Positions 13,375 through 53,241 of a stretch of 53,428 nt of DNA are shown here, piece after piece (the first letter of the stretch is position 1; each line of letters starts with the position of its first letter). Under the pieces are notes generated by a model. The model searched no databases. It had not been told where the DNA came from and saw nothing but the letters and a program-made list of their open reading frames with translations. Source of the stretch: a virus. The DNA is taken from IMG/VR virus record IMGVR_UViG_3300013285_000002, positions 1-53,428 of that record. One strand, given 5' to 3'. A program made the translations under genes and the position numbers.

Positions 13375-14217
13375 ATGTTGAAATTTACGAACAATGCTTC
13401 GGCAACTCTTGCGGGAAGTATCGCAAGCACAGCTACAAGCATTACGCTTTCTTCTGGCAATGGTGCTCTGATGCCTGCACTAGCAGCCGGTGAGTTCTTT
13501 TTTGCCACACTGATCGACTCATCAAACAACCTTGAGGTGATTCGCGTCACTGCTCGAAGTGCTGATGTTTTGACTGTGACTCGCGCTCAAGATGGAACTA
13601 CTGCTCGTGCATACGCCGCTGGTGACAAGGTTGAATTGCGCCTAGTTGCTGCAACATTCCTTGAACTTGTTCAGCGTGACGGCTCTGTTGTTATGACTGC
13701 CAACTTGAATCATGGTGGGTTCAAAGCGACTGGGCTTGCTGAGCCGACAGTATCAACAGATGGAGCTACAAAGAATTACACTGATACAGCAATTTCAAGT
13801 GCCGTCAGTGCAGAAGCAACGGCTCGCTCCAATGCTGATGCCGCTGAAATTACTGCTCGTAACACGGCAATTTCTAATGAAGCTACTGCAAGAACGAATG
13901 CAGACACTGCATTAGGTGCAGCGAAAGTAAGTCTTGATGGATCAAATGCAACTGGCACATGGGCTGGATCAACTGAATGGACTCGTGTAACCAATCGCCC
14001 AACATCATTGAACTCATTTTCAAATGACCCCGGATTTACGAATGGTGGTGGTGGCTACACAACTGCACGAACTTATGGCGATGGTGTAAATGCAATGGGA
14101 GCAGCGCCAGGAGGCGGATTAAATGTATCTGGCCGCGGCCTACAAATTATAAAAAGTGGGAATAATTATTTACTTTGGGGTAGCAATTGCAACTGTAATT
14201 GCTGCTGCTGCTGTTAA
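13375..14217 (+). CDS. Tail-fibre protein with a poly-cysteine C-terminal tip
   Basis: A 280-residue protein. Residues 1-90 are a beta-rich domain (SITLSSGNGALMPALAAGEF, AYAAGDKVELRLVAATF) followed by a collar-like segment (ANLNHGGFKATGLAEP), then a coiled-coil shaft of repeated Ala/Ser/Asn heptads (about 135-185), then a Gly/Thr-rich part. There is no cysteine until residue 272. The last nine residues hold seven: Asn-Cys-Asn-Cys-Asn then Cys 276-280. The final five Cys codons include four TGC in a row, and the gene ends with tandem stops TAA TAG. The last 25 codons are AT-rich, unlike the rest. It heads a coupled cassette with radical SAM and 2OG-Fe(II) enzymes, so the tip is a likely modification target. 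Confidence 0.85.
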   Translation: MLKFTNNASATLAGSIASTATSITLSSGNGALMPALAAGEFFFATLIDSSNNLEVIRVTARSADVLTVTRAQDGTTARAYAAGDKVELRLVAATFLELVQRDGSVVMTANLNHGGFKATGLAEPTVSTDGATKNYTDTAISSAVSAEATARSNADAAEITARNTAISNEATARTNADTALGAAKVSLDGSNATGTWAGSTEWTRVTNRPTSLNSFSNDPGFTNGGGGYTTARTYGDGVNAMGAAPGGGLNVSGRGLQIIKSGNNYLLWGSNCNCNCCCCC

Positions 14218-14232
14218 TAGAAAGATAATATT

Positions 14233-15039
14233 ATGAAAATTTTTCATGTAAAAATACATAAAGCAAATACTGCTGTTGAACTTTCATTTTATGAAGAGTC
14301 AATTAGTGTTTCAGTTATGGTGCATTATCCAACTTCAAAAGAAAATGATGATGGTATATCTTTAGAAGTTCCATTTTCGTTTAACAACCCTGATTTAACA
14401 TACAAAAAATCTACAGCAGTAATAAAAATTGCTGATTTACAGTCAAGCCCTCAAGCAGAGTCTGGTGCGTGTTGGAATGTGTATATGGATGAAAATTCAC
14501 TGTACCCAATCATCATAAATTCAAATGCAATGTCTCAGCCATTTCGCGGAGACGTTCATCAAGTTTATTCTGCATACTTACAAAAACCTCCGACGATTGT
14601 GATTTGTGTTCCAAGAATTGATTCTAAATTAGATGACTGCTTGATAGGCGTAAACACGTCTACCGATGCAGATGTAGGATTTAAATGCAGTACCACATTT
14701 ACTGATCTTGGAGATTCATATGATCTTGATTATGTGAGAAAAATGGTTCGTCCATTACTCTCGATTGTTGGAAACTTATCTATAACTCAAGGTACTTCGG
14801 AAATCTTTAACGTTACAGTTAATAATCAAGATGGTTCTATTGATGAACAGTTCAACGATCCTATCTATTTTGAGGCTACTGGTGGTCACTTAGCTGTATC
14901 TAAAGTGCAAGTAGTCAATGGAGTTGCTAAAGTAAGATTAATTGGGGATCACTTGATTGAAGGTGATGCAATTTCCATCAAAGCTGGAACGAAGTTTTAT
15001 ACATCACTTGCTAAGATTCATGTAAGGGTAACTGCATGA
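14233..15039 (+). CDS. AT-rich Ig-like domain protein in the modification cassette
   Basis: A 268-residue protein starting 15 bp after the fibre gene. Residues about 1-170 are of unknown fold and hold four cysteines. Residues 175-268 look like a bacterial Ig-like domain (SIVGNLSITQGTSEIFNVTV, then DPIYFEATGGHLAVSKVQVV, ending LAKIHVRVTA). Base composition is clearly more AT-rich than the genes on either side, suggesting recent arrival. Its TGA overlaps the ATG of the next gene. It could be a fibre partner, a chaperone, or a carrier presenting the fibre tip to the enzymes; none of these is shown. Confidence 0.7.
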   Translation: MKIFHVKIHKANTAVELSFYEESISVSVMVHYPTSKENDDGISLEVPFSFNNPDLTYKKSTAVIKIADLQSSPQAESGACWNVYMDENSLYPIIINSNAMSQPFRGDVHQVYSAYLQKPPTIVICVPRIDSKLDDCLIGVNTSTDADVGFKCSTTFTDLGDSYDLDYVRKMVRPLLSIVGNLSITQGTSEIFNVTVNNQDGSIDEQFNDPIYFEATGGHLAVSKVQVVNGVAKVRLIGDHLIEGDAISIKAGTKFYTSLAKIHVRVTA

Positions 15040-15647
15040 TTTTAAATTTGTGGCCTACTCGCGTAGCAGTCACAAAGCTCAACTACACAAACGAGTTTCT
15101 TGACAAGCTCAAGAACACTTGTTTGCGTGTTGATGCCCAGAAGAATCCAGAGGCTAAACCTTGGACTCGTGCTGACCATGACATCTATGATGAGCCGGAC
15201 GGTGAGCTGATAACTCTCAAGCAAGACATCATTGAATATGCTGAGCGTGCGTATGGTGTTAAGGTCGAGTCAATGACTGGAAGGGATATGATTTTGAGGG
15301 ATCGAGACTTGATTCCTCCGCACTCTGACCGAGACTCTCACTTGTCAGCAATCTTCTACATCCAGACTCCTGTTGTTGTGAAGCCACAAGAAAAAGATTG
15401 GAATGGTTTCTTTTTCATACAAGACCCTAGTCGCTACTTTGATGCACGTCAGATGCCTTGGGAGAACTGTGCCAACCATACAATAGCAGCAGAGAAAAAC
15501 CTATTGGTCATCTTCCCATCGCACCTCTGCCACTTCACTCACGCCATGAACCATCCAGATATGCAAATCGAGATGCACCATGAGATAAAAGTAAGCGGGG
15601 TGCATAACAGCAACGTGAGACGCATCACATACACCGAGGAAGAGTAA
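15036..15647 (+). CDS. 2OG-Fe(II) oxygenase-like protein (first of two)
   Basis: A 203-residue protein. Probable iron ligands are His96 and Asp98 (IPPHSDRDSHLSAIFYIQTP) and a distal His166 in LLVIFPSHLCHFTHAM, with the family's FFFIQDPSRY between them. This fits the putative 2OG-Fe(II) oxygenase family related to prolyl/asparaginyl hydroxylases. The usual Arg just after the distal His, which binds 2-oxoglutarate, is not seen; the matching stretch is IEMHHEIKV. It may use a different residue or be non-standard. Coupled by ATGA upstream and TAATG downstream to the radical SAM gene. Confidence 0.75.
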   Translation: MILNLWPTRVAVTKLNYTNEFLDKLKNTCLRVDAQKNPEAKPWTRADHDIYDEPDGELITLKQDIIEYAERAYGVKVESMTGRDMILRDRDLIPPHSDRDSHLSAIFYIQTPVVVKPQEKDWNGFFFIQDPSRYFDARQMPWENCANHTIAAEKNLLVIFPSHLCHFTHAMNHPDMQIEMHHEIKVSGVHNSNVRRITYTEEE

Positions 15648-17029
15648 TGGCACTGTTCAGGCTGAACACATTGAATCCAATGGATTCTGCTGATAAGAAA
15701 GTTTTCTACTACGACAACATGACATCAGCAATTCTTGATGAAAATCAAAACAAGATTGTCTTTGGTCAGTCTGAGCACAAAGAGTACAAGGATGCAGTTG
15801 TTGTTTCTGAAAACTCTCCGGGCAAGAAGACAAGCAGCATCAAACGTTTAAAGATTCAGCTTGGACTTTCCTGTAACTACGAATGTACCTACTGCAATCA
15901 ACGGTTTGTCCCTCATGCTGATGAGACAAACCCAGAAAGCATTGAGCCTTTCCTATCGCAGCTACCAACTTGGTTTGATGGTGGCTCTGATGGTAAAGGC
16001 GAGGGTGTAATTCTTGAGTTTTGGGGTGGTGAGCCATTTGTCTACTGGAAAACACTGAAGCCTTTGGCCGAGCGATTGAAGTCGATGTACCCAAACATCA
16101 CTTTTACGATGATTACCAATGGCTCTCTTTTGACATATGAAAAGAACCAGTGGCTTGATGATCTTGGATTTCAGATTGGCGTTTCTCATGATGGCCCCGG
16201 CTACCATGTTCGCGGTAAAGACCCGCTTGATGATCCTGAGCAACGGGCTGCAATCCTAGACTTGTGGAATAGGTTAAGCCCAACCAACCGCATGAGCTTC
16301 AACGCAATGATTAACAAAGACAATCAAAGCCGAAGTGACATTGCAGACTTTTTTCAAAAGAGTTTTGGGTTTACTCCTCCCATTGGCGAAGGAACATTTA
16401 TTGACCCATATGATGAGGGCGGTGAGAGTGCTTGCTTCGTTGAACCGGCAGATCATTTTGAGTTCAGGAACAAATCATTAGTTGAGCTTCGTGAAGGTGG
16501 AGCAAAGAACTTTGTCACCATCTCACAAAAGATTGATGACTTTGCAAAATCAGTAGTCAACAATCGACCGGCATCTGCTGTTGGTCAGAAGTGTGGAATG
16601 GACAGAACTGATAACATCGCCGTTGACCTTCTAGGGAATGTGCTAACTTGCCAAAACACCTCTCATGTTTCTTCTGGCCCAAATGGTCAGAGTCACCACA
16701 TCGGTCATGTAAGTAACCTTGAGGCTGTTGAACTCAAGACATCTTCACACTGGTCAATACGAGAAGAATGTCCTAAGTGTCCAGTGCTACAAATCTGTAA
16801 AGGTAGCTGCATGTTCCTACATGGACGGCTTTGGGAAATTGGATGTGACGCAGCTTTCTCTGACAACATCTCAATCTTCTCAGCAGCCTTTGAGTCAATG
16901 ACTGGATACATTCCATTCTATATTGATGGGCCACAGCGAGATAACCGTAAAGATATTTTTGGTCTGGTTAATGGCGCACCCGCAAGAAGCGCTAGGAAGC
17001 CATTCCCAATTCCTGTTATTTCAGCATGA
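15647..17029 (+). CDS. Radical SAM / SPASM maturase
   Basis: A 460-residue enzyme. The radical SAM core has Cys76-x3-Cys80-x2-Cys83 (LGLSCNYECTYCNQ), which binds the SAM-cleaving 4Fe-4S cluster, and the SAM-binding GGEP at 127-130. The C-terminal SPASM domain has Cys316, Cys335, Cys375, Cys378, Cys384, Cys388 and Cys400 in the spacing used to bind two auxiliary clusters, as in sulfatase maturases and RiPP enzymes such as sactipeptide synthases. The family modifies peptides and proteins. I see no PqqD-like leader-binding domain. It sits between two oxygenase genes and near the poly-Cys fibre, so that tip is the likely substrate. Phage-encoded SPASM proteins are unusual. Confidence 0.9.
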   Translation: MALFRLNTLNPMDSADKKVFYYDNMTSAILDENQNKIVFGQSEHKEYKDAVVVSENSPGKKTSSIKRLKIQLGLSCNYECTYCNQRFVPHADETNPESIEPFLSQLPTWFDGGSDGKGEGVILEFWGGEPFVYWKTLKPLAERLKSMYPNITFTMITNGSLLTYEKNQWLDDLGFQIGVSHDGPGYHVRGKDPLDDPEQRAAILDLWNRLSPTNRMSFNAMINKDNQSRSDIADFFQKSFGFTPPIGEGTFIDPYDEGGESACFVEPADHFEFRNKSLVELREGGAKNFVTISQKIDDFAKSVVNNRPASAVGQKCGMDRTDNIAVDLLGNVLTCQNTSHVSSGPNGQSHHIGHVSNLEAVELKTSSHWSIREECPKCPVLQICKGSCMFLHGRLWEIGCDAAFSDNISIFSAAFESMTGYIPFYIDGPQRDNRKDIFGLVNGAPARSARKPFPIPVISA

Positions 17030-17580
17030 GCCATATAAATCTGTTTGGTACTCCAGTATGGAAGCATTTTGTTGAGGCTCCTGAAGAGTTCAACAGAAAC
17101 CTATTTGTACAAGGCGAGTCATTTATTCGAGGCATGAACTACTTTGATCTTCCCGGTGATGCTATTGCCGAACTTAAAGTAAGCGTACTTGGGTTATCAA
17201 AGTCCATTGCAGCCGAGTTCAATTGGAATCGCCAAATAGCCTTTATCAAAGGTAGACAAAATCCAATTCATAAGAATCAGATTGATAGTCCTCACCACCA
17301 TAGTTCTGCAAAATTAGTTGGCGTCTACTATGTATCAGCTAATCTGGGGCAAGGAGACATCCTACTTCATGATCCTCGTGGAGCTACTACTTGGGATGAT
17401 CCTCAAGCAAGGTCGGACGATGGTAAGACGATGCGATCTTTCCATAGGATTACACCAGTATCCGGAATGCTTCTCCTTTTCCCCGGATACCTAATTCATT
17501 CTGTTGAACCAAATCTCACTGATGACGTAAGACTTTCAATTGCGATTGAAGTCTATACAGAATTTCCATCAGAACATTAA
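17026..17580 (+). CDS. 2OG-Fe(II) oxygenase (second of two)
   Basis: A 184-residue protein of the putative 2OG-Fe(II) oxygenase family. It opens with MSHINLFGTPVWKHFVEAP, as many members do. The metal site is in DSPHHHSSAKLVGVYYVS (His90-92), and the distal His158 is in LLLFPGYLIHSVEPN, followed by Arg169 (DDVRLSIAIEV), the expected 2-oxoglutarate ligand. GDILLHDPRGATTW is the typical middle stretch. Likely reaction: hydroxylation of a protein side chain using O2 and 2-oxoglutarate. Its ATG overlaps the radical SAM stop, which puts both in one transcript and probably one pathway. Confidence 0.85.
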   Translation: MSHINLFGTPVWKHFVEAPEEFNRNLFVQGESFIRGMNYFDLPGDAIAELKVSVLGLSKSIAAEFNWNRQIAFIKGRQNPIHKNQIDSPHHHSSAKLVGVYYVSANLGQGDILLHDPRGATTWDDPQARSDDGKTMRSFHRITPVSGMLLLFPGYLIHSVEPNLTDDVRLSIAIEVYTEFPSEH

Positions 17581-23906: not shown

Positions 23907-26900
23907 ATGGCATCTGGACTCAACGATTTAGGTAGTGATGATTTTCTAGATCAAGGTGATTCGTCGCCCGACATCTTTAAGACATTTGCAGAGGCTAACC
24001 AGCAAGTAAATACAAGGGCATCTGAGCTTCGGCTTGGACGCCCTGTTGCTGATAAGCCACCAGAACAGTTCGCCATGAATGACGCAAAGCCATTCACATA
24101 CACGCCACTTTTTAACGACTTGGCTCCAACTAAAGAGGCCCAGACAAAAGCTCCTGTCAGTGATGGAGGGTTTGCTTACACCCCGTTGTTTTCAGACCTT
24201 GAGCCAAAGAAGGCTGAATCCAATCCATTCATGCACGGCCTTAAAAGTGGTGGTATTGATTCTGCAAAGGAGTCTGCTGTTGGTGGTGCTGCACTGATTG
24301 CTCACACTGTTGGAGCAAAAGACACTGCTGATAAGCTGTTCACTAATCTCCAAGGTATGCAGAAGGAGTCTGAAGCTAACTCAAAAGAGTATGAGTCGTT
24401 TAGCAATGTGACGAGTGGGAAGGCTTCGTTTGGTGACTTCTTTGGTCATTGGGCTGGCTATGCTGTAGGTCAGGCGGCACAGACTGTTGCTGTTGCTGCT
24501 GCCGGTGCTGCTGTTGGCTCTGTTATCCCCGGTGCTGGTACTGCCGCTGGTGCTATCGGTGGGGTATTCGAGCGTGGCGTTGCGCAAGAGGGTATCAAGA
24601 AGCTTGTCGCCTCAAAGATGGAAGGCATGGTTGCCAAGAATATTGCTGAGAACACAGCAAAAGGAATGGCCTTGGCAGAGGCTGAGACCCTTGCATACCA
24701 ACAATCTGCCAAGACTGTGTTCCGGGAGATTGGTGTTGCCGCTGCGGTGACTGGACAGAACGTAATGATGGAAGGCTCATCCATCTATAGCGATGCTCGT
24801 GGAGATGCTGAGAAGCGTGGAGAGGAAGTTAACCTTGGTCGTGTATGGACTGGCACTATCTTGGCTGCCGCTACTGAATCAGCAATGGACTTTGTTGGCT
24901 TGAAGGGAATTCAGAAAGCTGCTGGTGGTGGCAACGTCTTTAAGAATATCGCGGTCGAATCATTCAAGGGCGGATTGCGAGAAGGATCAACGGAAGCCGT
25001 TCAAACAGGCTTCGAGAGATTTGGTGCTGGCCGTGACCTAGCTTCATCAGAAGCAATCCATGACTACATTGACAGTGCTGCTGCTGGCGCTGTTGGTGGT
25101 GTAATGTTTGGATCGGCAAAAGGTACGATGAAGTCGATGCGCGGAGAGCAAGACACCAATGAGAAGATGACAGTTGAGCAAGCCCGTGCAACTGTTGTTC
25201 AGCAATTAGATTCTGATGAAGGTCGTCGAACTCTTTACGACAGCATGATGGAAGACCCAAGGGTAGCTGCTGCACTGAAGCTATCTGGTATTGAGTCACA
25301 TGAAGACCCACGTTTTGACAAAGTAGTCATGCGCTCAATCAAAACATCACAAGCTCTTGAGGGGCTTGATGTTCCAACAGCCGAAGAGATTTCACAGAAA
25401 ACCAAAGATAGGAAGGCTGATTCGCAGGCTGCCTTTGGTGATACTGCCTCAACAGCTACTGGCGTGGGTACTGGTGCAAATGAACCAGTGATTCGACGCG
25501 ACTCCGTTACTCCAAACTTGGAGACAAAGACTCTCGACGGAGAAGCCAAGCCTGCAACCCTGACAACTGATGGAAGCGCTATCGCCATGTCCGGTGAGGA
25601 TATGGTTTCCCGTCAAGGTGGTTGGGAACCAGTGCCGCTTCAGGCTGAAGGCAAGGCAATCAATAACAGCTTCGTCTCACCTCAATTGGCCGAGACATTT
25701 ATGTATGGAACCAAAGACCCTGCCACTGGCAAACGGTCTGGTGGTTACGCCGAGTCTGCAACAGATACTGAGTTCCAGATTCGCAAAGCAAAGCGGTCGA
25801 AAGAGGCTGGCGGTGGAAACTTCTATTTCGTAGAGGGACGTGCCAAGAGTTCCGCAAGTACGACCGACCTCAAAAATACAAACACTGCTGGCTTTACTCC
25901 TGAGTCATCGACTCAAGTTCAGGCGCAAGTTGATGCAGTAAAGGATGGCCGAAAAGTTGCGGCCATTACTGGTGAGCAGGAGTCTAAGTCTGTTAACTCT
26001 GATGGCCTGACTACTGCGATTGTCAAAGACCCTGAGACTGGTTTGTCTTCTGCCGTCTACTCAAAAGACAAGGGCGTTGGCAAGAAGGTTCAGAAGCGCA
26101 TTGGAGAAGTTGGCCTCAAGCAGTCAATGGGTGAGGTGCTTGGATATGTTGAGCCGGGTGCTACTACAAACCCAGATGTGAGTAGCGTTGTTGTTAGGCA
26201 GACAGACAACACAAGTGGTGAAGTAATCCAAGAGCAAGTTGTTACTCCTGCAAACGTCTCCAAGATTCCAGCGATCAAGGGCACGAAGAATGAAGTTGTG
26301 ACTGTTGCAAAGGCGCAAGCTGACAGAAAGCAAAAAAGCGAACAAGTTACTGAACAAGTCAAACAGACTAAACCAGTCAAACAGACTGTTGAGCAGAACC
26401 TAAAAGACAAAGAAACTGAGCGCAAAAAAGCCAAAGCAGAAAAGGAAGTATCAGATGCCAAGTCCGTTCAAGCCGACCCCACTCCTACCAAAGATGAAGT
26501 TGCCAAAAGCACGCCTCCCGAAAAACCCGCTGCAAAAGCTGACAAAGCAGTTGAGCCGACAAAGCAAGCTGCCCCAGTCAAAGATGCCAAAGTAGTTGAG
26601 AAGAAAGAGGCTGCCCCCAAAGTCTCAAAATCTGCGGTACGTGAAGGCGCTATTGAATCGTGGGAAGACAATGATGATGGCAAAGCTGCACACACTCCGT
26701 TTGAGAAGCTATCCAAAGAGAATCAAGATGCTTGGCTTGCGGCCTACTCACCGGATGACGGAGAGGCCTCCTATTCAACTGCGCTCTATCATGATGAATT
26801 GGTACAGCGTGACCTCCGTGCGGCCCGTGTTGAGCGATCTAACAAGCGTGTGGCCGATGCTCGCGCCTCAGATGAAGACCTGAACGCAACCTTCCGCGTA

Positions 26901-29900
26901 AAAACGGTTGGCGATACTGGAATGAGCAAGGCTTCTGTAGAGAAGATCACATCCTTGGTCACTGCGAAATGGGAGAACCTTCCTCCAATCGTTGTTGTTG
27001 CAACAGAGGATGACCTTCCAATCAAGGCGCTGTCACAGATCAAGAAGAAGGACTCTTCAGGTCTTGTCCCCGGTATGTACTACAACGGCAAGGTCTATCT
27101 GATTGCTGGCAACATCCATGATGCCAATGATGCCGTCATCACGATTGCCCATGAGGTAACTGGACACTTTGGCCTTCGGTCTATTTTTGGCGAGGGTCAT
27201 GCCGAGAAGATGCTTGAGCTTTACAAGGGCAATAAGGCAATCCGCACGGCTGCCGACGCAATGATGGTCAAAGAGGGGCTGAGCAAAGTCATCGCAATTG
27301 AAGAGGCTTTGGCTGACATGGCTGAGCGCGATCCATCAACCCTCAAGGCCGATGAGAAAACTGCACTGACAAAACTGTATGAGGCTATTCGCAAGTGGCT
27401 GCTTGATACGCTCAACATCTCCAATGTTTCAGATCAGGAGATTGAACAGATCGTTGCAAATGCTCGTGCATATGTCATCGAAGGCAAGGGCACTGAAGGC
27501 AAAGGTGGTGTCGCTGGTGCTGCACAGTCTGTCAAGAATGAAGCAACTCTGCGCACTAATGGAACTCCGACTTTCTACTCCGCACTTGAGCGCAGCACGC
27601 GCATGGCAAAGCAAGAGTCTGCACCAGCTAAAGACTGGATTGCCATCATCTCAAAACTTCCGGGTGTGAAGAGTGAAGAGGTTGAGTGGACTGGTGTTAA
27701 CGAATGGCTTAGTGAACAGACCGGAAAGGTGACAAAGACTCAGGTCTTAGATTACATCGGCAATAACAAGATGCGTCTGTACGACCATATCTTGATCGAC
27801 ATGAGTAGCACTCCGACGCACGAGGACATGAGGGCTAAGCTGTTCGAGTTGATTGACTTGGGTGATTTGGATGAATCATCTGATCCAACCTACTTGAGCA
27901 ATGATGAACTGCAAGATGCGATTGCAACCAGTCTTGGACTGGGTAATTTTGTTCGTCAGTTCAAGGCAGACCAACGCAAATTAAAAGCACGTCATGGCGA
28001 TCTTGGGCATAACCTTGTACTTCCAAACGGTCGCGGCTATGTTGAGTTGACCGTCTCTGATCCGGGTGCTATTGAGTACAAGAAAAAAGATGAGGTTCAC
28101 TTCGGTGATGTGACTCATGGAAAAACAATTGGCTGGCTGCGCATGAACATCAGAGATGATGTCAACGGCAATCCAGTTCTGTTCCTCGAAGAGATTCAAA
28201 GTCAGCGTGCAAATGATGGACGTAAGGGTGGATTCGGTGCTGATGGTGCTGTTCCAGACGGCCCATTTATCAAGAGCACAGATGCGTGGACTTCGCTCCT
28301 ACTGAAAAGGGCAATCGCTTACGCACAAGAAAATGGAATTGACAGAATCTCTTGGACTAATGGCGAACAACAGAGCGAGCGATACGCACAAGACCCTGAT
28401 GAAAAAGGTCTTGCATATTACTACGATACAAAGCTCCCATCTGTTGCCAAAGAGTTGCTTCGCAAGCTAGGCTCCGGTGGATCAATCGAGCAGATGAAAT
28501 TCAAGGGAATGGTTCGCGGCCAAGAGTACGGCCTGCCAAGTGACTCCGAGTTTCAGGCCAATAAAAAATCTGGCGAAACTGTTGTTAGTTATGTCGCAAG
28601 AAAGAACGAAGAGGCTCCAAGCAAGGAGACAACGCACTCTGGCTTTGTGATTACCGAGAAGCTTCAGCAACTTGTCTCCGAAGATGGGATGCCAACGTTC
28701 CGCTTGCGTGACTATGAAGAACAGTTCGCTGACCTTCCTGCCAACGTTCGAGCTATGGCTGTTACAAAGGGTCACCGTAGTCCACCTAAGATCATGGATC
28801 GTCTGAAAGCTTTGCAGCCAAACCTTGCACGCCGGATCGTGCAGGGTACATTCGACAAGTTCCATGCCATCAAAGACATCGGTGACAAGTTCTACATCAT
28901 GGCTCGTATGTCCAACGGCCCACAAGAGGGTGGTCTGTCTGTTCTTGTTCATCACGGTCAGGTCTTCAATGACGGTGGTGCTTTGAATATCAAGAAGGGT
29001 ACGAAGGGTCTAGTTGATGTACTTAAAGAAGTTGGGCCAGAGGTTGATCGCTACCTCATGTGGGTCGCTGCTAACCGTGCTGGTGAACTCAAGAAAGATG
29101 AGCGCGAAAACTTCTTTACCCAAGAAGAGATTGACACTCTAAAAAAGCTAAACCTTGGAACAATGAAGGATGGCAAGTCTCGTGTTGCCACTTACATTAA
29201 GACTCTTCAAGGAATGAACGAACTGAACAAATCTGTTCTGGATGTTGCTAAGGGTGCTGGCCTCATTGATGATGCTGCCTACAAGAAGTTTTCCAACGAT
29301 GTCTGGTACGTTCCGTTCTATCGACAGATGGAGGATGATAAGTCTTTGTCCGGTGCGCAGACATCCTCCGGCCACGTCAATCAGTATCTGTCCAAGAAGC
29401 TGAAGGGTAGCTCACGCGGCGTCAACGACTTGATGGAGAACGTGCTTAACAACTGGTCACACATTCTGTCAGCCAGCATGAAAAACAATTCTGCTGTCGA
29501 GACTCTTGGTGCTGCCGAGAAGATGGGTGGGATTGTTAGCAGGCTCACCAAGATCGACGACAAGTTCGGGCGCGACACTGCCGGTAATGTTATTCCTCTG
29601 AAGTACACAGTCAAGGTTATGGAGGCTGGTAAGCCTATTCACTACGAGGTACATGATGAGTTCCTGTTGACTTCACTGGACTCGATTGCATCAATGGGTA
29701 GCAGCAACTGGGCACTCGATATTGCAGGTCAGTTCAAGACTACGCTGACACGCTTTGTCTCGCTTAGCCCAACCTTCAAGATCAACAACTTGATCCGCGA
29801 CTCTGTTCAATCGTTGGCACTTTCTGATAATGGCAATAGTCCTTGGGCAAATGCCAAGGGAGGATATGACGCATACCATAAGGATAAGGGTAGCGCTCTT

Positions 29901-31340
29901 GCCGGTGGTGGCCTGACTGTTATGGGCAATGCCTTCGACGGCGATCAGGCTAGCAACATCAAACGTATCCTGAAATCTGGTGTGAAATCTTCTAATGTTC
30001 TTGATACTACAAGCAAGGCTAAAGAGTGGTTTGGAAAATTCCAAGACAAGTACGATGACATCAGCGATGGTATGGAGAATGCAAACAGAATCTCCCTATA
30101 CAACCGGATCATTGCAAAGGGTGGCTCCCATCTTGAGGCTTCATTTCAAGCACGCGATCTGCAAGACTTCTCACTGCAAGGTAGCTGGGATGCAATCCGC
30201 TATGCAAGCAAGGTTCTTCCTTACTTCAATGCTCGGATGCAAGGTCTGTACAAGATTGGCCGTGATGGTCTGAGTCCTGTTCAATCTGTTCTGTTTGGCA
30301 AGGCAACAGATGGTGAGCGCAAGAAGGCCACCAAGTTTGCCGTAGTCCTTGGTGCAATCACGATGGTTGAGCTTGCTCTGTACCTTGCACAGATGGATGA
30401 CGAAGATTGGAAGAAGCGGGAAGAGTGGGACAAAGATTCCTTCTACTGGTTCAAACTTCCCGGTACTGAGAACGCTGTTCGCATCCCAAAGCCTTTTGAA
30501 CTTGGCGCAATTGGAACGGCTATTGGCCGAGTGACTGAACAGATCATTGATCCAGAAGTGGAGGGCAAGTTGTTCCGTCAACGGATGACGGCTCTGTTGC
30601 ATGACAACTTTGCGATCAACCCAATCCCACAAATCATTCGTCCGGTATGGGACTTGGCTGCAAACAAGGATGGGTTCACTGGACGCGATATTGAGTCAAT
30701 GGGTATGGAGCACATGTCTAAGACAAACCGAGTCAACCCCGGTACGTCTGCAATGTCTGTTGGCCTGAATAAGATCAATGACTTCTTTGCACAAGGTGTT
30801 TCGGCTGTGACTGGTGTAGATGCAAACAACCTACAACTTTCACCAATTCAGATCGACTACGCTGTACGCGGCTACTTGGGTTGGGTTGGCTCTGTGATGC
30901 AGTCAACCAGTACCTTGGCTGTGTCTCCATTAAAAGCTGGAGAGAGTGCAGACATGAAGATTGATGACTACCCTATCATCGGTACGTACCTCAAGTCTCT
31001 GCCTCCGTCGCAGTCAAAGTACATCACTGCCTTCTATGACCACTCCAAGGAGGTCACTACGGCTGTTGCTGATTACAAGATGTTGTCAGATGCTCATCGA
31101 GCAGATGAGGCTTTCAAGTTTGCTGAAGAGAACGGTGACAAGCTTCAGTTGGCAAAGATTTACTCATCGACTACCGCCGCACTGTCTAAGGTTTCTGGCC
31201 GGATCAAGATGGTTCAGGCTGCCGAGGACTGGACTGGTGCTGAGAAGCGAACAGAGATTGACAGACTGAATGCCATGAGGACTAGCCTAGCCAAGCGTGC
31301 AGAAGATATGCGCATGGCTCGTGCGCATAGATCAGACTAG
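23907..31340 (+). CDS. Giant polyvalent virion protein with metallopeptidase-like and LPD domains
   Basis: A 2477-residue protein, 14% of the genome, with AGGGG before the ATG. Order seen: short repeats FTYTPLFNDL / FAYTPLFSDL (55-95); a hydrophobic Gly/Ala region (about 185-222) that may enter membranes; a Lys/Ala/Pro linker (about 805-915); a metallopeptidase-like domain with VITIAHEVTGHFGLR (His1082); a large-polyvalent-associated domain around 1350-1510; a helical C-terminal part with LSPTFKINNLIRDSVQSLAL (about 1950) resembling LPD38; and a hydrophobic helix near 2145-2165. Such proteins are injected with the DNA and carry effector domains. The metal motif is HExxxH rather than plain HExxH, though this variant is common in phage polyvalent proteins as I recall. 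Confidence 0.85.
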   Translation: MASGLNDLGSDDFLDQGDSSPDIFKTFAEANQQVNTRASELRLGRPVADKPPEQFAMNDAKPFTYTPLFNDLAPTKEAQTKAPVSDGGFAYTPLFSDLEPKKAESNPFMHGLKSGGIDSAKESAVGGAALIAHTVGAKDTADKLFTNLQGMQKESEANSKEYESFSNVTSGKASFGDFFGHWAGYAVGQAAQTVAVAAAGAAVGSVIPGAGTAAGAIGGVFERGVAQEGIKKLVASKMEGMVAKNIAENTAKGMALAEAETLAYQQSAKTVFREIGVAAAVTGQNVMMEGSSIYSDARGDAEKRGEEVNLGRVWTGTILAAATESAMDFVGLKGIQKAAGGGNVFKNIAVESFKGGLREGSTEAVQTGFERFGAGRDLASSEAIHDYIDSAAAGAVGGVMFGSAKGTMKSMRGEQDTNEKMTVEQARATVVQQLDSDEGRRTLYDSMMEDPRVAAALKLSGIESHEDPRFDKVVMRSIKTSQALEGLDVPTAEEISQKTKDRKADSQAAFGDTASTATGVGTGANEPVIRRDSVTPNLETKTLDGEAKPATLTTDGSAIAMSGEDMVSRQGGWEPVPLQAEGKAINNSFVSPQLAETFMYGTKDPATGKRSGGYAESATDTEFQIRKAKRSKEAGGGNFYFVEGRAKSSASTTDLKNTNTAGFTPESSTQVQAQVDAVKDGRKVAAITGEQESKSVNSDGLTTAIVKDPETGLSSAVYSKDKGVGKKVQKRIGEVGLKQSMGEVLGYVEPGATTNPDVSSVVVRQTDNTSGEVIQEQVVTPANVSKIPAIKGTKNEVVTVAKAQADRKQKSEQVTEQVKQTKPVKQTVEQNLKDKETERKKAKAEKEVSDAKSVQADPTPTKDEVAKSTPPEKPAAKADKAVEPTKQAAPVKDAKVVEKKEAAPKVSKSAVREGAIESWEDNDDGKAAHTPFEKLSKENQDAWLAAYSPDDGEASYSTALYHDELVQRDLRAARVERSNKRVADARASDEDLNATFRVKTVGDTGMSKASVEKITSLVTAKWENLPPIVVVATEDDLPIKALSQIKKKDSSGLVPGMYYNGKVYLIAGNIHDANDAVITIAHEVTGHFGLRSIFGEGHAEKMLELYKGNKAIRTAADAMMVKEGLSKVIAIEEALADMAERDPSTLKADEKTALTKLYEAIRKWLLDTLNISNVSDQEIEQIVANARAYVIEGKGTEGKGGVAGAAQSVKNEATLRTNGTPTFYSALERSTRMAKQESAPAKDWIAIISKLPGVKSEEVEWTGVNEWLSEQTGKVTKTQVLDYIGNNKMRLYDHILIDMSSTPTHEDMRAKLFELIDLGDLDESSDPTYLSNDELQDAIATSLGLGNFVRQFKADQRKLKARHGDLGHNLVLPNGRGYVELTVSDPGAIEYKKKDEVHFGDVTHGKTIGWLRMNIRDDVNGNPVLFLEEIQSQRANDGRKGGFGADGAVPDGPFIKSTDAWTSLLLKRAIAYAQENGIDRISWTNGEQQSERYAQDPDEKGLAYYYDTKLPSVAKELLRKLGSGGSIEQMKFKGMVRGQEYGLPSDSEFQANKKSGETVVSYVARKNEEAPSKETTHSGFVITEKLQQLVSEDGMPTFRLRDYEEQFADLPANVRAMAVTKGHRSPPKIMDRLKALQPNLARRIVQGTFDKFHAIKDIGDKFYIMARMSNGPQEGGLSVLVHHGQVFNDGGALNIKKGTKGLVDVLKEVGPEVDRYLMWVAANRAGELKKDERENFFTQEEIDTLKKLNLGTMKDGKSRVATYIKTLQGMNELNKSVLDVAKGAGLIDDAAYKKFSNDVWYVPFYRQMEDDKSLSGAQTSSGHVNQYLSKKLKGSSRGVNDLMENVLNNWSHILSASMKNNSAVETLGAAEKMGGIVSRLTKIDDKFGRDTAGNVIPLKYTVKVMEAGKPIHYEVHDEFLLTSLDSIASMGSSNWALDIAGQFKTTLTRFVSLSPTFKINNLIRDSVQSLALSDNGNSPWANAKGGYDAYHKDKGSALAGGGLTVMGNAFDGDQASNIKRILKSGVKSSNVLDTTSKAKEWFGKFQDKYDDISDGMENANRISLYNRIIAKGGSHLEASFQARDLQDFSLQGSWDAIRYASKVLPYFNARMQGLYKIGRDGLSPVQSVLFGKATDGERKKATKFAVVLGAITMVELALYLAQMDDEDWKKREEWDKDSFYWFKLPGTENAVRIPKPFELGAIGTAIGRVTEQIIDPEVEGKLFRQRMTALLHDNFAINPIPQIIRPVWDLAANKDGFTGRDIESMGMEHMSKTNRVNPGTSAMSVGLNKINDFFAQGVSAVTGVDANNLQLSPIQIDYAVRGYLGWVGSVMQSTSTLAVSPLKAGESADMKIDDYPIIGTYLKSLPPSQSKYITAFYDHSKEVTTAVADYKMLSDAHRADEAFKFAEENGDKLQLAKIYSSTTAALSKVSGRIKMVQAAEDWTGAEKRTEIDRLNAMRTSLAKRAEDMRMARAHRSD

Positions 31341-52104: not shown

Positions 52105-53241
52105 TTATGCCTCGACTTTCATTTTTTCGTCAGCTTTCCAGCCGATAAAGTAGGTTGACTTGATCTGTTCCAAAGTACGGCCAGCGGCCATCAACTTCGT
52201 TGCATCTAGCAGGAATCGAGTGCTCATCACTCGGCTTAGGCGGCTTGCAATGATCTTTTTACGCACCGCCCAGCCCCATGCCAGTATTTCGGTATGAATC
52301 ACAGATTTTTCAAATCGTGTGTCGTAATCGAGCAGCACAGTACCGGCACGGAATCGGTCAAGCGTTGCCTCATCAAGTCGTTCACGGCCTGCATAAGTCA
52401 TGTTTGCACCAGTACCGAAGGTATTTGCAGCGCCAAGGCAAACAAAATCAACGTGACGTTTAACTTTTGTCCGTCCTTTGCGTTGAGGCAGGTAGAAACT
52501 ACCGTTTGCAAGGGCTTGATTAACGAATAGCAAAGTATTCGGGTCAGCAGCGTCCATTTCATCGAACAAAAAGACACCGCCGTTTTCGTACATCGTTACG
52601 AAGTCTGAAGGTGTGTATTCAAATGCCCCGCCGTCAGCAGGCAGCATCCAGCCAGTCAATGCAGACTCAGACATACCGGCAGTGCATGAGATTGACGCAA
52701 ACTCACGGCCAAGAGCTTCGGCAACCTGAATTGCAAGGTGAGTTTTTCCGCAACCGGCAGGGCCGACAAGCAAGATATTCAAGCCGCAACCAGCCGATAC
52801 CAAAACCTCCTCAAATTCAGCCCTTACATGGCCTTCGGCCTTGTGTGTCGTACCGTCAGGACGTTGCACCACAATCGTCGTAATGGGTGACTTGTCAATT
52901 GCCGCCTTGACTTCGGCAGCCACAATTTCCCGCACCTTGTTTTCGTCAACTGCACCGCCTAACAGTGACCGAAGGGCAGACAATGCCGCCGCATCACCAC
53001 TGTCAACAGACTGTTTAACAACCTTTGGTTGAACATCGGTGACGTCAGGCATATCGAACTCAACGTGGGCCAAGGCTTGTTCAATCTTGAATGAGTCGTA
53101 CATAGATAGCAAACGCTCAACACAATCGACGCGCTTTGTTCGTTCGTGGTCAAAGCCAACGGAACCGCCGTTCAAATTCTTGAATATTTCGAGTAGCGAA
53201 GTCTTCGACAGATTTAGTAACTTTTCACGTAGTTCGAGCAT
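52105..53241 (-). CDS. MoxR/AAA_5-type ATPase
   Basis: A 378-residue AAA+ ATPase. Walker A GPAGCGKT (160-167), Walker B VFLFDEMD (223-230), a sensor-1-like FVCLGAANTFG and a downstream arginine-containing RERLDEATLDRFRAGTVLLDYD. The N-terminal 150 residues are phage-specific, with helices and a linker. It resembles the MoxR/dynein-type AAA_5 group. Energy-driven remodelling with the VWA-like protein is likely. It is near the start of the leftward operon, so it is expressed early if the promoter at 784-813 is real. Confidence 0.88.
   Translation of the reverse strand: MLELREKLLNLSKTSLLEIFKNLNGGSVGFDHERTKRVDCVERLLSMYDSFKIEQALAHVEFDMPDVTDVQPKVVKQSVDSGDAAALSALRSLLGGAVDENKVREIVAAEVKAAIDKSPITTIVVQRPDGTTHKAEGHVRAEFEEVLVSAGCGLNILLVGPAGCGKTHLAIQVAEALGREFASISCTAGMSESALTGWMLPADGGAFEYTPSDFVTMYENGGVFLFDEMDAADPNTLLFVNQALANGSFYLPQRKGRTKVKRHVDFVCLGAANTFGTGANMTYAGRERLDEATLDRFRAGTVLLDYDTRFEKSVIHTEILAWGWAVRKKIIASRLSRVMSTRFLLDATKLMAAGRTLEQIKSTYFIGWKADEKMKVEA

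What the first reader, a model, noticed from the sequence alone, without database searches (positions are those of the whole stretch)
13375..17580. Phage fibre with a poly-Cys tip coupled to a radical SAM/SPASM enzyme and two 2OG-Fe(II) oxygenases
Seen: a fibre protein with seven cysteines in its last nine residues and none before, then a coupled run of an Ig-like protein, an oxygenase-like protein, a SPASM protein with intact cluster cysteines, and a second oxygenase. Known: SPASM enzymes install thioether or other crosslinks on Cys-containing peptides; 2OG oxygenases hydroxylate side chains such as Asn. Inference: the alternating Asn-Cys tip is crosslinked and hydroxylated before assembly, giving a hardened or metal-binding adhesin tip. 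I know of no described phage system of this kind.
Basis: partly seen in the sequence, partly recalled or inferred. Interest (0 to 1): 0.92.

Follow-up and report, generated by a model that had tools for sequence, protein, structure and literature searches.

The report
Phage fibre-tip maturation cassette
Many phages carry a fibre protein that ends in alternating asparagine and cysteine next to a gene for a radical SAM enzyme, and the two occur together so consistently that the enzyme very probably remodels the fibre tip, a kind of virus-particle modification for which we found no description.

Summary
Fibre 13375-14217 has seven Cys, all in its last nine residues (NCNCNCCCCC). It is followed by translationally coupled genes for an Ig-like protein, a 2OG-Fe(II) oxygenase, a radical SAM/SPASM enzyme with every cluster Cys intact, and a second oxygenase.

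Among 105 non-redundant rSAM relatives with enough upstream DNA, 95 have a same-strand neighbour with an (X-Cys)x3 run; for (X-Cys)x4 it is 71, against 1 on the opposite strand. X is Asn in 72% of positions, and most runs end the protein. Conversely, of 85 viral loci whose ORF truly ends NCNCNC, 63 have the rSAM in the same record, against 1 of 22 checked control contigs. Related fibres in rSAM-less phages lack the tip. The Ig-like protein is a new conserved partner; oxygenases are gained and lost often. In a few lineages a Hint domain directly follows the Cys tract.

Best explanation: the rSAM enzyme modifies the tip, most likely by Cys-Asn/Asp thioether cross-links; oxygenases add optional tailoring. 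Modification is strongly supported by genomics; the bond type is inference. No published description was found in open-access text.

The parts
13375..14217 (+). tail-fibre protein (280 aa), proposed substrate; N-terminal part related to tail fibres of Lessievirus-type podoviruses
   Evidence: phrog_8469 tail fiber E 3e-28; tblastn to BcepMigl, DC1, JC1 fibres
14185..14214 (+). C-terminal tip NCNCNCCCCC (proposed modified core)
   Evidence: sequence; same tip type in 95/105 non-redundant rSAM loci
14233..15039 (+). conserved partner protein: N-terminal alpha/beta domain plus C-terminal Ig-like domain; role unknown (chaperone/adaptor or virion part)
   Evidence: homologues in 68/105 cassettes; AF2 model pLDDT 90.5; Ig-like matches
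15036..15647 (+). 2OG-Fe(II) oxygenase 1 (HxD...H present)
   Evidence: PF13759 E 1e-6, phrog_81 E 3e-11, alignment
15647..17029 (+). radical SAM/SPASM enzyme (phrog_1802), proposed tip-modifying enzyme
   Evidence: AF2 model pLDDT 92.3; closest solved fold CteB 5WHY and anSME 4K37
17026..17580 (+). 2OG-Fe(II) oxygenase 2 (HHH variant of the HxD motif)
   Evidence: PF13759 E 4e-18; alignment

Best explanation
The cassette makes a chemically modified fibre tip. The fibre (or, in other phages, a small stand-alone tip protein) presents a flexible C-terminal run of alternating Asn/Asp/Ala-Cys. The rSAM/SPASM enzyme binds it, abstracts a hydrogen from (most likely) the beta carbon of Asn or Asp, and joins a Cys sulfur to it. 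This gives thioether cross-links within one chain (NCNC contains the N-x-x-C spacing) or between the chains of a trimeric fibre. The 2OG oxygenases, where present, add an optional oxidation such as Asn hydroxylation. The Ig-like partner probably brings substrate and enzymes together or becomes part of the tip. In a few lineages a Hint domain follows the tract and would be expected to cut itself off, leaving the tip at the C-terminus. The finished tip sits at the distal, receptor-facing end. Shown: the genes, their coupling, the association, intact catalytic motifs, the fold, and absence of the tip in fibres of relatives without the enzyme. Inferred: that the tip is the substrate (about 0.85), thioether chemistry (about 0.55), oxygenases acting on the tip (about 0.5), role of the Ig-like protein (about 0.35).
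For: Forward test: 95/105 non-redundant rSAM loci have an (X-Cys)x3 ORF on the same strand within 6 kb (20 opposite strand); for x4 it is 71 vs 1. X = N 380, A 73, D 43 of 531; 89 of 115 tips end within 6 aa of the C-terminus. Reverse test: scan for NCNCNC-stop: 63 of 85 true-tip loci have the rSAM in the record; 0/35 non-tip loci in the stretch held, 1/22 in whole contigs. Natural controls: BcepMigl, JC1, SopranoGao, Parlo and Itty13 fibres share the N-terminus but lack tip and rSAM; cyanophage fibres align to residues 7-924 of the L190 fibre, not to its tip. Gene order is mostly tip-Ig-(2OG)-rSAM. Tip type follows the rSAM tree (7 changes; all groups together 16 vs 30.3 shuffled). Nearest folds are CteB and anSME. 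Precedent for Cys-Asn (NxxcA) and Cys-Asp (freyrasin) beta-thioethers made by rSAM/SPASM enzymes: PMC8326336.
Against: No biochemical data. Fold similarity is moderate (TM about 0.5) and does not fix the chemistry. Ala at 14% of X positions and the poly-Cys end in this window do not pair one Asn per Cys. Ten of 105 loci lack a tip, several of them distant homologues in bacterial chromosomes. Three NCNCNC protein families (nine loci) have no rSAM in their record. Phage and cassette relatedness may inflate the tree signal.
Confidence: 0.62

Rival explanations
1. The rSAM enzyme modifies the tip but by other chemistry: Cys oxidation to formylglycine, epimerisation, heterocycle or thioamide formation, so that the tip becomes a metal ligand or reactive group.
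For: SPASM enzymes do many reactions; anSME is among the nearest folds and an annotator called the JWF homologue a sulfatase maturase. Alternating X-Cys resembles metal-binding sequences.
Against: The anSME general base Asp277 (identified from memory) aligns with the residue after the SPASM Cys, an invariant Gln here (GNVLTCQN vs GSVYPCDF). Asn/Asp at 80% of X positions fits beta-carbon thioether acceptors better.
Confidence: 0.22
2. The Cys-rich end is the core of a released, RiPP-like peptide (toxin or signal) that uses the fibre or small protein as a carrier.
For: Precursor-plus-maturase layout, C-terminal Cys-rich core, small stand-alone proteins of about 61-140 aa in many loci, Hint domains that could liberate a piece.
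Against: No protease, exporter or immunity gene is evident in the window cassette. Many substrates are full fibres of 280-1082 aa, one with five carbohydrate-binding modules. The Hint domain lies C-terminal to the tract, so it would free the fibre end, not the peptide.
Confidence: 0.08
3. The tip works by itself as a disulfide or metal knot; the rSAM gene serves another target and is merely a neighbour.
For: Cys-rich ends can bind metals or form disulfides unaided; nine NCNCNC loci have no rSAM in the record.
Against: Association in both directions across divergent rSAM lineages and different fibre bodies, and tip absence in rSAM-less relatives.
Confidence: 0.05
4. The rSAM and 2OG genes are auxiliary metabolic genes acting on host small molecules or DNA/RNA.
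For: phrog_81 2OG genes are filed as auxiliary genes.
Against: The genes lie inside the fibre gene block, coupled to the tip gene; the best family matches are peptide maturases (PapB, geopeptide, SCIFF).
Confidence: 0.03

Closest known systems
Ranthipeptide maturases (NxxcB, PapB, SCIFF maturases such as CteB)
   Same: rSAM+SPASM architecture, adjacent Cys-rich substrate, Asn/Asp near Cys; CteB is the top PDB fold match; PapB the top NCBIfam hit (53.6 bits)
   Different: far below every such NCBIfam maturase cut-off; substrate is a phage fibre or tip protein, not a short leader-core peptide; no RRE-like winged helix in the N-terminal region of the model (beta strands only)
QhpD (quinohemoprotein amine dehydrogenase maturase)
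   Same: SPASM enzyme that puts Cys-Asp/Glu thioethers into a protein subunit rather than a secreted peptide
   Different: bacterial enzyme subunit as substrate; TIGR03906 match only 41 bits against a cut-off of 453
Anaerobic sulfatase maturase (anSME)
   Same: fold, SPASM Cys pattern
   Different: residue at the general-base Asp position is an invariant Gln; substrate tip lacks a sulfatase CxPxR motif
PHROG 1802 'radical SAM domain-containing protein'
   Same: the window enzyme is a member (E 9e-63)
   Different: no function or substrate assigned there
Phage fibre auto-processing (S74-type chaperone, Hint/intein)
   Same: C-terminal processing of fibre proteins; Hint directly after the tip in JWF-type loci
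   Different: enzymatic radical modification is additional

Membership tests
radical SAM/SPASM enzymes | CxxxCxxC cluster motif | tested here: met
   C76, C80, C83 invariant
radical SAM/SPASM enzymes | SPASM Cys set (C-x-G-x4-C, CxxCx5CxxxC...C) | tested here: met
   C316, G330, C335, C375, C378, C384, C388, C400 invariant; TIGR04085 31.3 bits over its cut-off of 27
radical SAM/SPASM enzymes | fold of a two-auxiliary-cluster SPASM enzyme | tested here: met
   AF2 pLDDT 92.3; 5WHY E 1e-13, 4K37 E 7e-13
ranthipeptide/sactipeptide (RiPP) systems | Cys-rich C-terminal core next to the maturase | tested here: met
ranthipeptide/sactipeptide (RiPP) systems | short leader peptide with RRE recognition domain | tested here: not met
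   substrates are 61-1082 aa structural-type proteins; the N-terminal 60 aa of the enzyme model are beta strands, no winged helix; no RRE family among the hits listed
ranthipeptide/sactipeptide (RiPP) systems | protease/exporter for product release | tested here: not met
   none evident in the window cassette; not checked locus by locus
ranthipeptide/sactipeptide (RiPP) systems | thioether bond in product | not testable with these tools
   needs mass spectrometry
anaerobic sulfatase maturase | catalytic Asp (Asp277 in anSMEcpe, position from memory) after the SPASM Cys | tested here: not met
   Gln336 invariant at the aligned position
2OG-Fe(II) oxygenases PF13759 | HxD...H iron ligands | tested here: inconclusive
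   first oxygenase HSD...H; second has HHH in place of HxD although it scores far over the Pfam cut-off
PHROG 1802 | profile match over most of the length | tested here: met
   residues 20-414, E 9e-63

The most novel reading that the evidence does not exclude
A widespread, undescribed class of phage and prophage systems in which a dedicated rSAM/SPASM enzyme, with a conserved Ig-like partner and optional 2OG oxygenases, installs Cys-Asn/Asp cross-links into the receptor-facing ends of fibres, giving covalently locked (possibly inter-chain) non-canonical adhesin tips, sometimes unmasked by a self-cleaving Hint domain.
Probability: 0.45. Interest if true: 0.95.

Novelty: new variant of a known kind. 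Interest (0 to 1): 0.88.

Why it matters
It would be a post-translational radical chemistry acting on virus structural proteins, on the very part that meets the host cell, and in many phages of Proteobacteria including isolates (Achromobacter phage JWF and 2-1) and prophages of culturable bacteria (Limnohabitans, Burkholderia paludis, Thalassobacter). It gives PHROG 1802 a testable function, links rSAM/RiPP enzymology with phage adsorption, and offers many natural enzyme-substrate pairs with an unusually simple core sequence.

Tried and rejected
Chance or DNA-repeat origin of the tip: rejected; synonymous codons are mixed (both Asn codons in 69/88, both Cys codons in 50/88 tips) and the opposite-strand control is 1/105. 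Sulfatase-maturase reading: Asp-to-Gln at the base position. Unrelated-bodies argument: single-linkage clustering of fibre bodies gives 10 groups at E 1e-6 but 82 of 114 fall in one group through shared fibre segments such as PTxLSxFTND, so I claim several, not many, unrelated carriers. 2OG-substrate hint from tip composition: Asn 77% with and 64% without a nearby 2OG, too confounded by lineage to use. Literature: eight full-text searches of open-access PMC found no description; subscription papers and preprints are not covered.

Full report
WHAT IS THERE. The window is a virus record of 53,428 bases from a temperate short-tailed phage: terminase, head-tail adaptor, major head protein and integrase are present, and its fibre N-terminus is closest to Lessievirus-type podoviruses of Burkholderia. 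In the tail-gene region lie the fibre 13375-14217 and four following genes: 14233-15039, 15036-15647, 15647-17029, 17026-17580, which overlap one another by 1-4 nt. The fibre has seven Cys, all in its last nine residues. The third of these genes encodes a radical SAM/SPASM enzyme with every cluster Cys conserved, and the second and fourth encode PF13759 2OG-Fe(II) oxygenases.

IS THE PAIRING REAL? Forward test. The rSAM protein brought 80 loci from IMG/VR and 80 from bacterial genomes. After removing near-copies (80% identity) 128 enzymes remain, 105 with at least 3.5 kb upstream. Of these 95 have a same-strand ORF with three or more consecutive X-Cys units within 6 kb, against 20 on the opposite strand; with four or more units it is 71 against 1. 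X is Asn in 380 of 531 positions, Ala 73, Asp 43; 89 of 115 tracts lie within six residues of the C-terminus, and in 36 long fibres the rest of the protein is almost Cys-free.

Reverse test. In 85 the pattern is the true end of an ORF of at least 60 aa; 63 of these records carry the rSAM gene (56 in the fetched stretch, 7 more when the whole contig was searched). One more (L139) has a weaker partial match at the contig edge. Of the remaining 21, 12 are stretches that stop within about 1.5 kb downstream of the tip and whose fibre is related to one that has the rSAM, and nine belong to three protein families without rSAM (184, 190 and 202 aa). Of the 35 loci where the pattern is not a protein end, none has rSAM in the fetched stretch; 22 of their whole contigs were checked and one has it.

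Natural controls. Five related phages (BcepMigl, JC1, SopranoGao, Parlo, Itty13) carry fibres with the same N-terminus but no rSAM and no Cys tip. The 1,082-aa fibre of L190, with five carbohydrate-binding modules, aligns to cyanophage and Pelagibacter-phage fibres over residues 7-924 but not over its tip; those phages did not appear in the rSAM search.

THE CASSETTE. Homologues of the Ig-like protein 14233-15039 are found in 68 of 105 cassettes and of the oxygenases in 48 of 105. The commonest orders are tip-Ig-rSAM (22) and tip-Ig-2OG-rSAM (19). On the rSAM tree the oxygenases change 24 times and the Ig-like gene 14 times, while tip type changes only 7 times and is more clustered than in any shuffle (near relatedness inflates this). 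So tip and rSAM are the core and the oxygenases optional. The Ig-like protein is predicted with high confidence (pLDDT 90.5); its C-terminal half matches Ig-like domains such as intimin D0-D1, and its N-terminal half has no clear match.

TIP CARRIERS. Three arrangements exist: (i) fibre or small stand-alone protein ending in the tip, often several tandem paralogues of about 90 aa; (ii) a Cys-rich domain (NCNCG..QC..C...NC.NCD...LQ.NCNCACTYNC) just upstream of, or after, the rSAM gene, sometimes followed by a ~180-aa domain starting SKIICxKLYELG; (iii) a tract followed at once by a Hint domain, as in Achromobacter phages JWF and 2-1, Burkholderia paludis MSh1 and several alphaproteobacterial genomes (the Pfam match for JWF is over its cut-off, several others are below it). 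A C-terminal Hint is expected to cleave itself off and leave the tract at the end of the protein (inference from the known chemistry of Hint domains).

THE ENZYME. The model (pLDDT 92.3) is closest to CteB, which makes the SCIFF thioether, then anSME and the RiPP maturases ChlB and TigE. The anSME general-base Asp (Asp277, from my own knowledge) aligns with an invariant Gln, which argues against formylglycine formation. rSAM/SPASM enzymes are known to join Cys to the beta carbon of Asn (NxxcA, Cys23-Asn20) or Asp (freyrasin) (PMC8326336). NCNC contains the N-x-x-C spacing, and 80% of X residues are Asn or Asp. Thioether cross-linking is therefore the likeliest reaction, but nothing here shows it. 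There is no RRE-like winged helix in the N-terminal region; substrate recognition may use the conserved N-terminal beta domain (invariant Tyr22) or the Ig-like partner.

VERDICT. That the fibre tip is the substrate: about 0.85. Thioether chemistry: about 0.55. Oxygenases acting on the tip: about 0.5. It works like a RiPP-type rSAM maturation system but does not meet two features tested (short leader with RRE; release machinery), so I do not file it as a RiPP. Eight open-access literature searches found no description; subscription papers and preprints were not searchable.

Noticed in passing
L002:3793-5244, L003:3853-5295, L079:1790-2575, L230:5778-7307, L276:5257-6486, L280:5386-6600, L283:5059-6624: Hint (intein-like) domain begins at the last Cys of the X-Cys tract; suggests autoprocessing that exposes the tip.
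   Followed up: partly
L042:1980-2771, L043:8451-9335, L047:8501-9400, L050:9910-10812, L054:8446-9321: About 180-aa domain starting SKIICxKLYELG follows the Cys tract; no Pfam match in the two examined (L042, L047) nor in the L040 relative; might be another removable C-terminal domain.
   Followed up: partly
L025, L072, L073, L078, L237, L251, L262, L270, L083: Two rSAM genes side by side in the cassette, the second more divergent.
   Followed up: no
L100, L130, L149, L165, L183 (202 aa); L097, L138, L144 (184 aa); L157 (190 aa): Proteins ending NCNCNC without an rSAM gene in the record; the 202-aa family is weakly related to tip proteins of L192.
   Followed up: partly
L249, L271, L272, L281, L282, L284: Distant rSAM homologues in bacterial genome contigs (e.g. 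Variovorax, Bacteriovorax, Sulfuritalea) mostly without an NC tip; perhaps an older non-phage branch.
   Followed up: partly
window 14200-14214: The terminal CCCCC is a TGC repeat (TGC x4, TGT) and could vary in number by slippage.
   Followed up: no
window 52105-53241: CobS-like ATPase (phrog_249, porphyrin biosynthesis) in the phage genome.
   Followed up: no
window 23907-31340: Very large ORF of 2,477 aa after the fibre region, not examined.
   Followed up: no
L004:571-789: Small Cys-rich ORF (8 Cys) before a distant rSAM gene in an unverified gut virus contig; looks SCIFF-like.
   Followed up: no
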